Shown piece after piece: positions 27,701 to 40,404 of a DNA stretch of 64,000 nucleotides. The notes beneath the pieces were generated by a model. It did no database searches, had not been told where the DNA came from, and saw only the letters and a list, made by a program, of their open reading frames with translations. Origin of the DNA: an uncultured Bacteroidota bacterium (GTDB lineage Bacteria; Bacteroidota; Bacteroidia; UKL13-3). The stretch covers positions 1 through 64,000 of the forward strand of contig CAIVZR010000035.1 of the NCBI GenBank assembly GCA_903910445.1, read 5' to 3'. The stretch's first letter is position 1, and every line of letters begins with the position of its first letter. The position numbers and the translations under genes were made by a program.

Positions 27701-28351
27701 TTACTTTTTGTTGAAGAAACGCATTTTTACAAACTGGTAAAAAACAGGAATTAAAGAAACTCCAATGATTCCAAGAATTACCATTTCGATATGTTTCTGC
27801 ACCCATTCATTATGAGCGAATGCATAACCACATAAAGATACGGTAGATACCCAAAGTATGGCACCCAATACGCAGAATAAGATGTACCGGCTATATTTCA
27901 TACTTCCTGCACCAGCTACGAATGGAGCAATGGTACGTATGATGGGAGCAAAGCGTGCAAGGATAATTGCTTTACCTCCATGCTTCGCGTAAAAGGATTC
28001 CGTTTGAGTGATATACTCTTTTTTCAAAAACAGAAGCCTTTCTCTTTCCTTAATTTTAGCTCCAAAGAACTTACCGATAAAATAATTGAGATTGTCGCCA
28101 CATAAAGCTGCAATAACCAATAATGGAATCACGATAAAAATACTAATTCCACTATTTCCTGTAATAGCACATACTGCACCTACCGCGAAGAGTAAGGAGT
28201 CGCCAGGCAATAAAGGCATCACTACCAACCCCGTTTCGGTGAAAATAATGAGGAATAAAATAACGTAAACTAGCCAACCATAAGTGTTAGCGAGGCTTTG
28301 CATCCCATCGGGTGTGGTAAGCTGATGTATTAAATTTTTGATAAAGTCCAT
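27701..28351 (-). CDS. DedA/SNARE-associated family membrane protein
   Basis: From MDFIKNLIH the product has 216 residues. It shows the DedA pattern of membrane segments with FTETGLVVMPLLPGDSLLF, the GDNLNYFIGKFFG segment, ARFAPIIRTIAPFVAGAGSM (the conserved F/R-x-x-P-x-x-R region) and a final helix. DedA proteins of this type are now linked to lipid carrier (undecaprenyl phosphate) or phospholipid flipping; which of these applies here is unknown. The upstream extension to 28369 (MQTFYF) is less likely. Confidence 0.9.
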   Translation of the reverse strand: MDFIKNLIHQLTTPDGMQSLANTYGWLVYVILFLIIFTETGLVVMPLLPGDSLLFAVGAVCAITGNSGISIFIVIPLLVIAALCGDNLNYFIGKFFGAKIKERERLLFLKKEYITQTESFYAKHGGKAIILARFAPIIRTIAPFVAGAGSMKYSRYILFCVLGAILWVSTVSLCGYAFAHNEWVQKHIEMVILGIIGVSLIPVFYQFVKMRFFNKK

Positions 28352-28403
28352 AAAATAAAAAGTTTGCAAAAGTCGTTAATACATATATCATAAAAAAATA
28401 AAC

Positions 28404-32593: not shown

Positions 32594-33115
32594 CTATTTC
32601 TTTGCAGTCTTCTCTTTCTTTTGTTCTAAAACAGTAAGCGCAAAATCAAAAAACAAATCAATAGCTTCGGTAAATCGAAACTTATCACCCTCTAATTCTT
32701 CAATTAAATTAATACGAGAAAGACGTGCAAGAAAACGACGTGTATCACCAAAATCAATGCTTTCGAGCACATTGAAATATACCGAACCTCTTACCATTAC
32801 ATCAACTTGGTCGTATTCAAAAATGCTAAAACGAATAAGATCCTGGAAATTCTTTCCTTCATTATCCAATTCGTAAGAAATGATTCCAATGAATATCGTG
32901 ATATCCCTTGAAAACTTCTCGTTACTTTCATTACTTGTTAAGAAGAAATAGGTTTTTTTCTGAAGGATATCATAACCAAACGAAGTATGAAAAAAAGCCT
33001 TATAGAATTCAATATTCGACTTGATGATTTCATATAACGGGTTGCTCTGAGAGAGAATGAATTTCCCGTCGAGTAATTCTTTAACAATTTGTTGGTGCTG
33101 ATTAGGGTAATCCAT
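32594..33115 (-). CDS. MukE/MksE-like subunit (KITE type) of a condensin-like complex
   Basis: The 173-residue protein starts with VKELLDGKFILSQSNPLYEIIKSNIEFYKAFF and continues FGYDILQKKTYFFLTS. This resembles the N-terminal winged-helix part of MukE/MksE/JetB proteins, which bind the kleisin subunit. A second helical region ends in a lysine-rich tail. The ATG is one base after the kleisin-like stop, so translation is likely coupled. Recognition is by pattern and gene context and needs a profile search to confirm. Confidence 0.65.
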   Translation of the reverse strand: MDYPNQHQQIVKELLDGKFILSQSNPLYEIIKSNIEFYKAFFHTSFGYDILQKKTYFFLTSNESNEKFSRDITIFIGIISYELDNEGKNFQDLIRFSIFEYDQVDVMVRGSVYFNVLESIDFGDTRRFLARLSRINLIEELEGDKFRFTEAIDLFFDFALTVLEQKKEKTAKK

Positions 33116-33116
33116 T

Positions 33117-34337
33117 TTAAACTTCTTGCTTTGGTTTTTGGGTCACTTTTTTATCGATGGTAAGGCTTGGTACGTCTAGGGTAAGTCCGCTAAATTTTAC
33201 TTCTGTGCGCTCAGAAGCATCAAAGGTGATATCATAATCTTCATCAAAAATAAGGGCGCTCATTGCGAAGAATTTATCGAAATCGAAATCTTGACGGGTA
33301 ATTTCATTCTTCATTAGATTATTACTCCATAAAAAATAATTTTTAATAGGGAGAGATTGGGTGATAATCTTTTTGAATTTTACACGATCGAATACCCATG
33401 GCAACTCTATGTCTTTCTGACCGTCGGCAGTATTTAAAATCACCTCATCTTGCTTTACCAATTGGTCCCAAATGTCTTTGGCTGCAAAGTATGCATCGGG
33501 GTCATAAGTAGCATGACGAGTGCGCTTGAGCAAAATAGGGGTGTCGTAAAAATTCGGCTTCTTTAAGAACTCCATGAATCCAGCCAATATTTGCGATTCG
33601 GTTTTGATGCGTTCAAGTAGCGGTAATAATTCCTTGGTAAGTACTCTTGAATTTTTCACCAATTCAACATTGGCGCTAATTACTTGGTTATATAATTTCT
33701 CATATAATGAACGTATCGAAAAATCGGGATTATAGATACGTTCTTTATTTGCCTGCTCGCGAACCAAGCTTAGTTTATGAATTACCGAACCGGTATGATT
33801 CGCATCGAGAATTTTATTTAGTGGAACAATATAAAAATCGATGAAATAAGTAGCTTTTTTTATTTTTTCTACATACTCAATTTTACGAACGTTGGCCTTT
33901 AATTCTTTACTTTCATTTAAAAGGCTTCGTGTATTACTTTCAATGGTTTCAATAAAATGCTGCACCTCATCAATCATACCTGAAATAAGCCGGTGAAGGG
34001 ATTCAGGGTTCTCTTCGCCAAGTAGTTTTTCGTAAATTTCTTCAATGGAATTGAAGTACTTACGGATATTCTCTGGCAAATCAAGTTTATAATCCTCACT
34101 GATATAATTAATGAAAATCTCAATTGGTTTCCTTAATTCAAAATCACCTTGTTGTAGTTCACGAATGATTTTATAATCCACCAGTTTCCGCCAATCAATA
34201 TTTTCTTTCTGACATAGTTTCTTTAATTTTTCATCATGGATGATGGCATCATGTTTATTCATGGCAATCAACTCCAACATAAAATCAAATTTATCGGAGA
34301 GGAAATTCAGTACGGTTCTAGGTTCGGCTTGCAGCAC
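33117..34337 (-). CDS. MksF/JetA-like kleisin subunit of a condensin-like complex
   Basis: The 406-residue protein is predicted to be mostly alpha-helical with long amphipathic stretches (residues about 100-260, ESLHRLISGMIDEVQHFIET). An N-terminal region could fold as winged helix (KKLCQKENIDWRKLVDYKI), and a C-terminal part is less regular and ends in a basic tail. Size, composition and position between an SMC-type ATPase gene and a MukE-like gene are those of MukF/MksF/JetA kleisins. No enzymatic motif is seen. The identity is inferred mainly from context. Confidence 0.6.
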   Translation of the reverse strand: MLQAEPRTVLNFLSDKFDFMLELIAMNKHDAIIHDEKLKKLCQKENIDWRKLVDYKIIRELQQGDFELRKPIEIFINYISEDYKLDLPENIRKYFNSIEEIYEKLLGEENPESLHRLISGMIDEVQHFIETIESNTRSLLNESKELKANVRKIEYVEKIKKATYFIDFYIVPLNKILDANHTGSVIHKLSLVREQANKERIYNPDFSIRSLYEKLYNQVISANVELVKNSRVLTKELLPLLERIKTESQILAGFMEFLKKPNFYDTPILLKRTRHATYDPDAYFAAKDIWDQLVKQDEVILNTADGQKDIELPWVFDRVKFKKIITQSLPIKNYFLWSNNLMKNEITRQDFDFDKFFAMSALIFDEDYDITFDASERTEVKFSGLTLDVPSLTIDKKVTQKPKQEV

Positions 34338-34430
34338 GGGTCGATTATTTTTTTATGTTGCCAATTTTATTAAATGGCAATAAATCATGGGTTTATAATT
34401 ACGTTACTTTGTCATTATTGAAACTTGACG

Positions 34431-37100
34431 CTAGCTTGGTAAAGCAGCAGTTTCATTTGTCTTAGCATTAATAGAACGCGTTTCGTTAACAATTACTTTT
34501 CCTGTTGCATCTGGTATTAAGAAATAATATTTCTCAATATCAGGTAATACAATTCCATCGGGAGCAGCAAATATTGGAACGATATTATTTTCCTTACAGA
34601 AACGGATAATTTCTTTACGGTTAATATTTCCAAACTGTCCACCTTCATCAATATAGATTACAATCTTATTCTCTTCTTGATCTACCACCATCCATTTGAT
34701 CAAAGTAAGGAATATAAACAGCTTAATCATACGGTCGGTACCATCACTCTCAATTTGCTTGCTGATATCAACGCGTTCTTTCTTGCCACCTTTTTGAATT
34801 TCTACGATGAGTTCGAACATTTCTTTAAACTCTACCTTACGTGAATATTTCAAATATCGATCGAGGATTTGAATATTGTCGGGCTTATTGAAATTCAATA
34901 ATAGCAAGTCTTTCGGGATGGCTTGTATACTTCCAATCTTTTTCAAGTCGTTTATCAACCGTTCGTTTTCCACCACGGTAATCGATATTTTTTCAATATT
35001 CGAAACGGTATAGTTCGAAAGATGGGTATTAAATCGTTTTACAAACTCTTTAAAGTCGTTGAATTTATTAAGTAACTCAATGGTTGGAATTGAGAAATCA
35101 TTCGCTACCGATTGCAAAAGGGTATCAATCGCTTGCTCCTTATCTTTCAGTGTAGCGATCTCATCATCTACGTATTTAATGAACTCTCTTTCGCTGGCTA
35201 TATTATTGTCGAGCTTCAATTTTAAATTCATGAAAGCCTCGTCCTTCGTCACTTTCAGGTCGTTCTTGTCGCGGTTCTCATTCTTTAATTTGCGATATAC
35301 TGCATCAATCTTATCTTCTCCAAATTTGTGCACTACCGGACTCAAATTTTCATCACGCAATTCATTATGCCATACAATCAAATCGCGTTTTCGATTCGTG
35401 AGTTCGATTTTTTGTTCATTGCGTTTGTTTATCAATTGCTCTACATCTGCAGTTTCTTTGCGCAATTTGGCAAGCTTCTTCTCGCTTTCAGGAATTAGCT
35501 TATTGGTCAATATAGAAATCTCTTCATTCAGCGCATCCATCTGCCTTTGCAGGTTTTGTTGGTTGGCAATCCGTTCTTTCTTCTTGTTGATCTCAGCAAT
35601 TTTTGAATCAATTTCTACCAATTGCTTCTCATAGCTTTCTTTCTCAAGCATCACCTTCAGCAATTCTTGTGCATCAAATAATTTGCTTTTATATGAGGCA
35701 AGTTGTTTGGTGAATTTCTCTACACTCTCCACGGTTTCCTTCTTCAATTCACTAATATCAATTTGTCCGTCGAAAATTTTCAGTAAATCGTCCGCCTTAT
35801 TAATTATTTTCTGGATCTTCTCTTTTGGCAAACGCAATACCTCTTTGCTTAATACGCTATTTACCAAAGTTTTTATATTGTCGTCAACAGCAATATTATT
35901 GATGAGCAAATTATCATAATTCTCAACGTCCTTTTGTGTAGCCTCCATCTTATATTGAAGATCACGAATCTCATCCATCACATCTTGGCTGCTGAATTTT
36001 TGACGAGCCACGGTTTGTAGGCGGAATTCAATATCGGCACGTGGATTTGACAAATTCACCAATTGCTCATTGAGGAAATCAATGGGCTCATAGCTGCTGA
36101 TTTCCTTGAATTCGTTATACGTTCTCTCAAAAATTTCGGTCTTATTCTTCAATTCACTTTTTTGAGAACCGATATGAATAAGTAGCTTATCCTTCTCTGG
36201 ATTCAAATCTTCATTGATTTTAACATGCAAGCCGTTAATCTCATTTTCTAAATTACTGGTTTGGTCATCTAAGGTTTCAATATCCCTATTATGCTTCTCC
36301 AAAAATTCAAAATAGAGTTCTCCTGTCTTGGTGTACTTCTCCTGATACTTGTCAAATACAGTTTTGAATGTTCCAAAGTCTGACTTTACCGATGAAATTT
36401 TATCTATCTGGCTTTTTAGTTTATCGAGTTCGAGCAAGTTATATTTATCTCTTTCACTGAAACTCACATTATCACTTTCTCGATTATCTGCAATAATTAA
36501 TGAATCCTTTAACGTATCACTCTTAATCAGTTTTGGATTAAAGAGATTCATATAAATCTTGGTAAAACTATTACTCAACCCTCTCGATTTGATGGTGTCC
36601 TTTAGCCATACCACCCCTTGCGAATTCATATCACGCTGATAAACCAATTGGAATACCTCCTCTCTAGTTTGCAACAAATTATAGGTAATGCCTTGGGCCT
36701 CTAGGTTGGCGAGGAAGCTATCAAAATCAATAATTGATTCTTTCGTTTTGGTAGTTTTTACAAATAAGTCATCACGGTATGGGCAGTCTACTTTGTAATA
36801 TTCAAGCTGTTTATCCGGGGTTCTTCTCAGTACAATGCAATACTCGCCTTTCTTACTAATGGAAAAGATGATATAACTCTTGTTGTGCGACGGGAAATAG
36901 AAGTGGATGGAGGTTTGAAAGCTACGATCACCACTGAACTGCATTTTGTTTCCATCAATAATGAATAGGAAATTCAACGCATTGATAATCGAACTTTTTC
37001 CAACGTTATTCGGGCCTACCAGCTGCAACGAATCTACATTTAGGTTCAATACCGCTCTGCTATATGATGCAGAGTTAATTAAGACGATTTTATTTAGCAT
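34431..37100 (-). CDS. SMC-type ATPase of a MksB/JetC-like condensin complex
   Basis: From MLNKIVLINSASYSR the product has 889 residues; the frame runs 30 codons upstream without family-like sequence. Walker A GPNNVGKSS is at 29-37 and Walker B IVIYIDE ends at 819. Between them lies a long coiled coil (about 240-720) with a hinge-like interruption. The position of the ABC signature reads SDGTD (785-789) instead of LSGGQ. It is shorter than MukB (about 1480) and close to small MksB-type ATPases. It should form a DNA-entrapping, ATP-driven complex with the two genes downstream, acting in chromosome folding or plasmid restriction. Confidence 0.75.
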   Translation of the reverse strand: MLNKIVLINSASYSRAVLNLNVDSLQLVGPNNVGKSSIINALNFLFIIDGNKMQFSGDRSFQTSIHFYFPSHNKSYIIFSISKKGEYCIVLRRTPDKQLEYYKVDCPYRDDLFVKTTKTKESIIDFDSFLANLEAQGITYNLLQTREEVFQLVYQRDMNSQGVVWLKDTIKSRGLSNSFTKIYMNLFNPKLIKSDTLKDSLIIADNRESDNVSFSERDKYNLLELDKLKSQIDKISSVKSDFGTFKTVFDKYQEKYTKTGELYFEFLEKHNRDIETLDDQTSNLENEINGLHVKINEDLNPEKDKLLIHIGSQKSELKNKTEIFERTYNEFKEISSYEPIDFLNEQLVNLSNPRADIEFRLQTVARQKFSSQDVMDEIRDLQYKMEATQKDVENYDNLLINNIAVDDNIKTLVNSVLSKEVLRLPKEKIQKIINKADDLLKIFDGQIDISELKKETVESVEKFTKQLASYKSKLFDAQELLKVMLEKESYEKQLVEIDSKIAEINKKKERIANQQNLQRQMDALNEEISILTNKLIPESEKKLAKLRKETADVEQLINKRNEQKIELTNRKRDLIVWHNELRDENLSPVVHKFGEDKIDAVYRKLKNENRDKNDLKVTKDEAFMNLKLKLDNNIASEREFIKYVDDEIATLKDKEQAIDTLLQSVANDFSIPTIELLNKFNDFKEFVKRFNTHLSNYTVSNIEKISITVVENERLINDLKKIGSIQAIPKDLLLLNFNKPDNIQILDRYLKYSRKVEFKEMFELIVEIQKGGKKERVDISKQIESDGTDRMIKLFIFLTLIKWMVVDQEENKIVIYIDEGGQFGNINRKEIIRFCKENNIVPIFAAPDGIVLPDIEKYYFLIPDATGKVIVNETRSINAKTNETAALPS

Positions 37101-39366: not shown

Positions 39367-40404
39367 TTAATCAAGCGGATTGAACTTCGTTTTTTTCACT
39401 GGCCTCAAAGCTTGTTCTTTTGCGTTTTGCTCCGATTTTAGTTTGGCCTCATCGATGAGCATCTTTCCTTGCTTTTCTGGATTGTTATTTATGGCTTTTC
39501 TTTCCAATTCATCAAGCTTGCCCGTATCTACACGCCCATCATAAACTTCACGCTTTACCTTACTCTCCAGCGATTTTTCGCTCACATTTGGTGTATTGAT
39601 ATTGGTATTCGGCTTGACCTTATTAACTTCACTATTCAATTTTGCTTCTGCATATTTTTCATCTGGCACATTCACATTCGTATTCGGCTTTACCTTGTTT
39701 ACTTGCTTATTCAATTCGTTTTGTGCAAACTGTTCGTCAATTTTAGGTTGCGCAGCAAACGGATTTGGAATATCAACTTTTCCTTTGAGTTCCCTTTGGA
39801 TAATTGCAATTTGTTGCTCTGGCGTTGGAATAATTGGATTGTATAGCGTTGTGCCAGTTATTGGAATCACGGTGCCGAACGAATCAACAGTTTTGTTCTC
39901 AGCAACATTCTCAATCACTTGTGTTTTTAATCGCGACCCGTCGAAAGAGAATACTAGCAAACGATTGGGGTCCATATCCTCTACAATGAAACTTTCTATG
40001 GGCCCAAAGAAATCGCGCAATTGGGCGCTATCGCAGGTGGGTAAAAATACTCGTAATACACGTGGGTCATAAAATCGGAAATAGAGTTCTTGTCCATCTT
40101 CCGTTTGCACCATCAGGAACTTTCTGAAATGCTTATGTAAATCTTCAATAGTTTTCTGGCTAACGATAAATATCCCCCATGAATTTCCCCAACCACGATC
40201 CATTAACCAGCTTCCAAATTCAGTATTGTTTTTATATGGGAATAAGTAGGGGGCAACACTCGAAAGAAGTTCTTCGCTTCTCCCTTGATAAAGGCTTAAA
40301 AAATTAGTCTGTAATTTTTTCGCCGTATTCAATTCACCAAAAATACGCGCCGCATCAAGGATGGAATATGTTGGATTGAGTTTGTTTAAAGTATCTTGAA
40401 GCAT
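39367..40404 (-). CDS. DUF4123 effector-adaptor protein with C-terminal repeats
   Basis: Residues 50-155 match DUF4123 (FGSWLMDRGWGNSWGIFIVS, FRKFLMVQTEDGQELYFRFY, DPRVLRVFLP). Known DUF4123 proteins (Tap/TEC) load toxic cargo on VgrG. After a linker, residues 231-248 and 256-273 are a repeat (LNKQVNKVKPNTNVNVPD and LNSEVNKVKPNTNINTPN), with a weaker third unit before a charged tail rich in lysine. This extension is unlike the usual compact adaptor. It is the last gene of the type VI block on this strand. Confidence 0.85.
   Translation of the reverse strand: MLQDTLNKLNPTYSILDAARIFGELNTAKKLQTNFLSLYQGRSEELLSSVAPYLFPYKNNTEFGSWLMDRGWGNSWGIFIVSQKTIEDLHKHFRKFLMVQTEDGQELYFRFYDPRVLRVFLPTCDSAQLRDFFGPIESFIVEDMDPNRLLVFSFDGSRLKTQVIENVAENKTVDSFGTVIPITGTTLYNPIIPTPEQQIAIIQRELKGKVDIPNPFAAQPKIDEQFAQNELNKQVNKVKPNTNVNVPDEKYAEAKLNSEVNKVKPNTNINTPNVSEKSLESKVKREVYDGRVDTGKLDELERKAINNNPEKQGKMLIDEAKLKSEQNAKEQALRPVKKTKFNPLD

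What the first reader, a model, noticed from the sequence alone, without database searches (positions are those of the whole stretch)
32594..37100. Three-gene condensin-like locus with SMC first and no JetD
An SMC-type ATPase (889 aa), a helical kleisin-like protein (406 aa) and a MukE-like protein (173 aa) are encoded on one strand in that order. MukFEB, MksFEB and Wadjet JetABCD place the kleisin first and the SMC third, and Wadjet adds a JetD nuclease. Here the order is SMC, kleisin, MukE-like, and no fourth gene is present on either side. This may be a Bacteroidota-specific chromosome-folding or anti-plasmid system. The sequence shows gene order and Walker motifs; the subunit identities of the two small proteins are inference.
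Basis: partly seen in the sequence, partly recalled or inferred. Interest (0 to 1): 0.72.

Follow-up and report, generated by a model that had tools for sequence, protein, structure and literature searches.

The report
Nuclease-less SMC-first condensin of Bacteroidota
Three neighbouring genes encode a MukBEF-like ring motor that probably folds the chromosome; its relatives carry a DNA-cutting fourth gene that was lost here, and its bacterial order lacks the usual condensin, so an anti-plasmid machine may have become a chromosome organiser.

Summary
On the minus strand lie SMC (889 aa), kleisin (406 aa) and MksE (173 aa), with no JetD. MksE is a clear Pfam MksE. The predicted SMC fold matches MukB best, then JetC. 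The predicted kleisin fold matches MukF and JetA.

The set belongs to a compact SMC-first family in Bacteroidota that held PADLOC, NCBIfam and Pfam models scarcely recognise. Other Bacteroidota MksE loci use kleisin-MksE-SMC-JetD. Within this family some members are SMC-JetD-kleisin-MksE. The JetD, SMC and kleisin trees largely agree, and one relative keeps a JetD fossil in the same slot. So JetD was lost repeatedly; the trio is not simply a rearranged MksBEF.

The trio is in 38 of 45 high-quality genomes of the window's order, where ScpA is in 0 of 64; ScpA is in 208 of 247 genomes across the phylum. Among 50 carriers, ScpA was found only in genomes with intact or broken JetD. Two such loci lie beside integrases. 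Trio proteins are 86-93% identical between congeners, most neighbours 49-67%.

Best reading: a Wadjet/MukBEF-type motor that lost its nuclease and now organises the chromosome in place of SMC-ScpAB. Function is inferred. Seven high-quality genomes lack both systems.

The parts
34431..37100 (-). SMC ATPase subunit (MukB/JetC-like), 889 aa, first gene of the operon
   Evidence: ORF; predicted fold: Foldseek best MukB 9gm9 E 5.4e-17, VIA Z 24.4 to MukB head 3euj; hhalign to conventional Bacteroidota MksB/JetC set 95.7%, E 9e-9 over 85 columns
34338..34430 (-). 93-nt gap between SMC and kleisin; in relatives this slot holds JetD, a JetD fossil or a micro-ORF; here no JetD remnant is detectable
33117..34337 (-). 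kleisin (MukF/JetA-like), 406 aa: N-terminal winged helix, helical middle, low-confidence linker, C-terminal winged-helix-like domain
   Evidence: model; Foldseek only three hits E<=1e-3, all MukF or Wadjet-II JetA; VIA Z 13.4 to MukF 3rpu
32594..33115 (-). KITE subunit MksE, 173 aa
   Evidence: Pfam PF21980 MksE E 1.4e-19, 71.4 bits against cut-off 27; all 36 aligned relatives match

Best explanation
The locus encodes a three-subunit SMC motor of the MukBEF/MksBEF/Wadjet superfamily. SMC dimers, bridged by the kleisin with a KITE (MksE) dimer, use ATP to extrude or compact DNA. The family ancestor was a compact Wadjet-like operon, SMC-JetD-kleisin-MksE, which in some hosts still sits beside integrases and probably cuts plasmids. 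In the window's lineage and others the JetD Toprim nuclease was deleted, so the motor can no longer cut. It is retained as a chromosomal condensin in genomes that have no SMC-ScpAB. Shown: gene content and order, predicted subunit folds, JetD loss, absence of ScpA, strong purifying selection. Inferred: ATP-driven loop extrusion, chromosomal role, replacement of SMC-ScpAB, and plasmid cleavage by the four-gene form.
For: Subunits. Four-gene relatives with JetD between SMC and kleisin; Toprim acidic residues E143, D186, D188 invariant; hhalign to conventional JetD 92%, E 6e-7. JetD, SMC and kleisin trees share the main splits (L089+L051; L131+L134; L130 with the four Flavobacteriaceae), so the four-gene state is probably ancestral. 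JetD fossil in L080/G290: 55 aa, 54.5% identical to intact JetD of the close relative L089, found again by profile at E 4.5e-7. JetD intact in only 3 of 64 order genomes, none in own genome. ScpA 0 of 64 in the order against 208 of 247 in the phylum; SMC hinge 0 of 64. MksE in 52 of 64 order genomes, 38 of 45 high quality, while the SMC family is full length in only 2 of 247 phylum-wide genomes. Among 50 carriers ScpA occurs only in L130, L131, L134 (JetD intact) and L136 (JetD broken), and in none of the JetD-less ones. Trio 86-93% identical among congeners while most neighbours are 49-67%; dN 0.055-0.105 against 0.35-0.44 for CdsA/PgsA at saturated dS. JetD+ loci L131 and L134 lie near integrases, L131 also near a resolvase and a GmrSD restriction enzyme. 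The literature already proposes that P. [quoted passage not shown]
Against: Seven of 45 high-quality order genomes lack both the trio and ScpA, and in genus g129 the trio is in 4 of 10, so it is not indispensable everywhere. ScpA is also missing from other families of the class that lack this trio, so its absence alone does not show replacement. Some JetD+ carriers (L124, L127, L133, L140, L089, L096) also lack ScpA. The JetD+ locus L096 lies in what looks like an ATP-synthase gene cluster, a core context. The kleisin shows no sequence-profile link to conventional kleisins, only a fold match from a model with pLDDT 73 and pTM 0.41. The SMC hinge model misses Caulobacter among the controls, so that negative is weak. 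No functional data.
Confidence: 0.68

Rival explanations
1. The trio is still an anti-plasmid or anti-phage system that either works without cutting (sequestering or compacting plasmids) or borrows a nuclease encoded elsewhere.
For: Relatives are four-gene Wadjet-like operons, two of them beside integrases; patchy presence in genus g129.
Against: No JetD anywhere in the own genome and in only 3 of 64 order genomes; near-core distribution in the order; very slow protein evolution in a conserved neighbourhood within the genus.
Confidence: 0.18
2. An accessory condensin with a secondary role in nucleoid compaction or repair, the main organiser being an unidentified SMC complex, as proposed for Bacteroides.
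For: Seven high-quality order genomes have neither trio nor ScpA; PMC10197239 reports Bacteroidetes with no known condensin, one of them with chromosome-arm alignment.
Against: In the own genome no other SMC-length protein stood out in the SMC_N search; the best match is a 555-aa RecN-sized frame.
Confidence: 0.12
3. A repair ATPase system (RecN, RecF or Rad50 type) mistaken for a condensin.
For: Weak sequence hits to Rad50 and archaeal SMC-related models; Rad50 head Z about 21.
Against: MukB is the best fold match; operon partners are a MukF-fold kleisin and Pfam MksE.
Confidence: 0.02

Closest known systems
MukBEF (E. coli)
   Same: SMC fold (best PDB match), MukF-type kleisin fold, KITE subunit, no nuclease, no coexisting SMC-ScpAB
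   Different: Gene order SMC-kleisin-KITE instead of mukF-mukE-mukB; SMC 889 aa against about 1,480 (from knowledge); no detectable full-length sequence match; different phylum
MksBEF of Pseudomonas aeruginosa type (nuclease-less)
   Same: Three subunits, chromosomal role proposed, JetD loss proposed for both (PMC10586767)
   Different: Gene order; here an independent loss inside a separate family; genomes lack SMC-ScpAB, whereas P. aeruginosa has both condensins (PMC7485682 abstract)
Wadjet JetABCD / MksBEFG
   Same: The four-gene relatives encode the same four kinds of subunit, including a Toprim JetD homologue; superfamily folds
   Different: Order SMC-JetD-kleisin-KITE; compact SMC (about 885 aa against 1,056-1,171 in other Bacteroidota loci) and JetD (about 264 aa against 305-403); sub-threshold or no PADLOC matches; window locus lacks JetD
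SMC-ScpAB
   Same: Presumed role
   Different: No ScpA or SMC hinge match in the order; different kleisin and KITE

Membership tests
MukBEF/MksBEF/Wadjet superfamily | SMC subunit with MukB/JetC-type fold | tested here: met
   Foldseek MukB E 5.4e-17, JetC about 2e-10; VIA Z 24.4 MukB; hhalign E 9e-9 to Bacteroidota MksB/JetC
MukBEF/MksBEF/Wadjet superfamily | kleisin of MukF/JetA fold with N- and C-terminal winged helices | tested here: met
   on a predicted model; sequence-profile link not detected
MukBEF/MksBEF/Wadjet superfamily | MukE/MksE/JetB KITE subunit | tested here: met
   PF21980 E 1.4e-19, 71.4 bits, cut-off 27
MukBEF or MksBEF proper | operon order kleisin-KITE-SMC | tested here: not met
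   window and relatives are SMC-first; the other Bacteroidota loci examined are kleisin-first
MksBEF (NCBIfam equivalog MksE NF040858) | score above the curated cut-off of 400 bits | tested here: not met
   15.8 bits
Wadjet (JetABCD) | JetD Toprim nuclease in the operon | tested here: not met
   absent from locus and genome
Wadjet (JetABCD) | restricts circular plasmids | not testable with these tools
   needs an experiment
SMC-ScpAB | ScpA kleisin present | tested here: not met
   0 of 64 order genomes, control positive in 208 of 247
Chromosomal condensin (function) | organises or segregates the chromosome | not testable with these tools
   indirect: near-core, slowly evolving, no other condensin detected in the own genome

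The most novel reading that the evidence does not exclude
A compact SMC-first Wadjet type unknown to current defence catalogues has been turned, by repeated deletion of its nuclease, into the only chromosomal condensin of an order of Bacteroidota, displacing SMC-ScpAB; in a Flavobacteriales branch a conserved 33-40 aa microprotein now occupies the nuclease slot and may be a new regulatory subunit.
Probability: 0.5. Interest if true: 0.78.

Novelty: new variant of a known kind. Interest (0 to 1): 0.62.

Why it matters
Reviews propose that MukBEF and MksBEF arose from anti-plasmid Wadjet systems by losing the nuclease (PMC10586767), but examples of the transition are few. Here the steps are visible side by side in one family: intact four-gene loci, two of them next to integrases, a broken JetD, a JetD fossil, and nuclease-less trios in genomes without SMC-ScpAB. 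It also supplies a candidate condensin for a part of Bacteroidota, a phylum in which two gut members were reported to have no known condensin and one of them to show chromosome-arm alignment nevertheless (PMC10197239).

Tried and rejected
Direct sequence search of the PDB with the kleisin and MksE profiles found nothing, and with the SMC profile only a Beclin-1 coiled coil. PADLOC and NCBIfam gave sub-threshold matches only. The hypothesis that the trio is merely a rearranged MksBEF was rejected because relatives carry JetD in the SMC-kleisin gap with a largely congruent tree. The hypothesis that JetD had moved elsewhere in the genome was rejected. Plasmid-borne close copies: none, only one 24% identity partial match in Salinibacter. 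Profile comparison of kleisins with conventional ones failed, so the kleisin call rests on predicted fold and operon position. Literature searches for Bacteroidota-specific accounts of this operon found none in the open-access library.

Full report
Observation. The three ORFs are real and lie on the minus strand: SMC 37100-34431 (889 aa), kleisin 34337-33117 (406 aa), MksE 33115-32594 (173 aa). The neighbours are CdsA and PgsA upstream and a convergent GNAT gene downstream. No fourth gene is present.

Subunit identities. The 173-aa protein matches Pfam MksE (PF21980) at E 1.4e-19, far over the cut-off, as do all 36 aligned relatives. The SMC was modelled from 46 relatives (pLDDT 79). Its best PDB matches are MukB chains (Foldseek E 5.4e-17; VIA Z 24.4, rmsd 3.8 A over 378 residues), followed by Rad50 (Z about 21) and JetC (Z about 20). 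Profile comparison with conventional Bacteroidota MksB/JetC gives 95.7% probability over the C-terminal head. The 406-aa protein has no family match by sequence. Its model (pLDDT 73, pTM 0.41) has an N-terminal winged-helix-like domain, a helical middle, a low-confidence linker and a C-terminal winged-helix-like domain. Its only Foldseek hits at E 1e-3 or better are MukF and Wadjet-II JetA, and VIA ranks MukF first (Z 13.4). Z 13 is within what helical bundles can reach by chance, so the call leans on the Foldseek ranking and the operon partners together.

Family and gene order. In the window's order 52 of 64 genomes have this MksE, 38 of 45 high-quality ones. The locus is SMC-kleisin-MksE in most. 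In three genomes of the order and in several other Bacteroidota a 261-279 aa protein sits between SMC and kleisin. It carries the Toprim acidic residues, matches JetD weakly in PADLOC and Pfam, and matches conventional JetD by profile at 92%, E 6e-7. Eight other Bacteroidota MksE loci taken from the phylum sample were examined: six show the usual order kleisin-MksE-SMC-JetD with longer SMCs; L179 shows kleisin-MksE and then ends at the contig edge; L185 has the kleisin, then a frame of 1171 aa covering the MksE position and the SMC in my ORF filter, then JetD. All are kleisin-first. So the SMC-first arrangement marks a separate compact family.

JetD was lost. The JetD, SMC and kleisin trees of ten four-gene loci share their main splits, which points to an ancestral four-gene operon; some JetD branches have moderate support only. 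Locus L080 (genome G290) keeps 55 codons of a JetD C-terminus in the gap, 54.5% identical to the intact JetD of its close relative L089, and the JetD profile finds this again at E 4.5e-7. L136 has a broken JetD. The SMC tree needs at least five changes of JetD state, with the caveat that some loci are truncated and were scored as lacking it. The own genome has no JetD.

What replaced what. ScpA is in 208 of 247 genomes sampled across the phylum and in 0 of 64 of the window's order. The SMC hinge model also gives 0 of 64, a weaker negative because it misses one control. Among 50 genomes that carry this family, ScpA was found in four: three with an intact JetD and one with a broken JetD; in none of the JetD-less ones. 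Six JetD+ carriers lack ScpA too, four of them Flavobacteriaceae, so the association is one-directional and not corrected for relatedness. Two of the JetD+ loci in ScpA+ genomes lie near phage-type integrases, one of them also near a resolvase and a GmrSD restriction enzyme, an accessory-defence setting. The JetD+ locus L096 lies instead among genes that look like an ATP-synthase cluster, judged from the protein starts only. The window genus keeps its trio in one conserved neighbourhood at 86-93% protein identity while most neighbours are 49-67%, with dN 0.055-0.105 against 0.35-0.44 for CdsA and PgsA.

Interpretation. The simplest account is a Wadjet-like motor that lost its nuclease and was kept for the host's own DNA. 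This matches the published suggestion that MukBEF and MksBEF came from Wadjet (PMC10586767). It bears on a stated puzzle: two Bacteroidetes of a mouse gut consortium have no known condensin, and one shows arm alignment (PMC10197239). This family does not solve that case directly, because a full-length SMC of the family was found in only 2 of 247 phylum-wide genomes.

Limits. Seven high-quality genomes of the order have neither system, and genus g129 is patchy. ScpA is missing from other families of the class as well. No function was measured. The order is known here only by anonymous codes; contig lengths identify one member, G308, as Bacteroidetes bacterium UKL13-3.

Novelty. The parts are known kinds; the gene order, the compact size and the visible series from four-gene to three-gene form with ScpA absence are, as far as the searched open-access library shows, undescribed. 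I rate it a new variant of a known kind.

Noticed in passing
L114:5291-5413, L115:6988-7110, L132:9442-9564, also L109, L116, L119, L122, L123: Conserved micro-ORF of about 33-40 aa (motif like E-V-[KR]-[VL]-K-[YF]-[HN]-L) between SMC and kleisin in Flavobacteriales loci, in the slot where JetD sits in others; dN/dS about 0.13-0.17 in three pairs. Possible new micro-subunit.
   Followed up: partly
L076:10686-15205: About 4.5 kb holding two ORFs (318 and 1149 aa) lies between SMC and kleisin.
   Followed up: no
L136: JetD broken into two frames and no MksE detected, in a genome that keeps ScpA: a decaying locus.
   Followed up: partly
L137: A JetD-less trio in a MAG labelled Candidatus Competibacteraceae (Gammaproteobacteria), nested among Flavobacteriales in the tree: binning error or transfer.
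   Followed up: no
genomes G259, G276, G285, G286, G288, G289, G298: High-quality genomes of the window's order with neither this trio nor ScpA; no condensin was identified.
   Followed up: no
window 27701-28369 and 39367-40404: The other two genes near the trio that are strikingly conserved among congeners (about 86% and 78-82% identity where most others are 49-67%).
   Followed up: no
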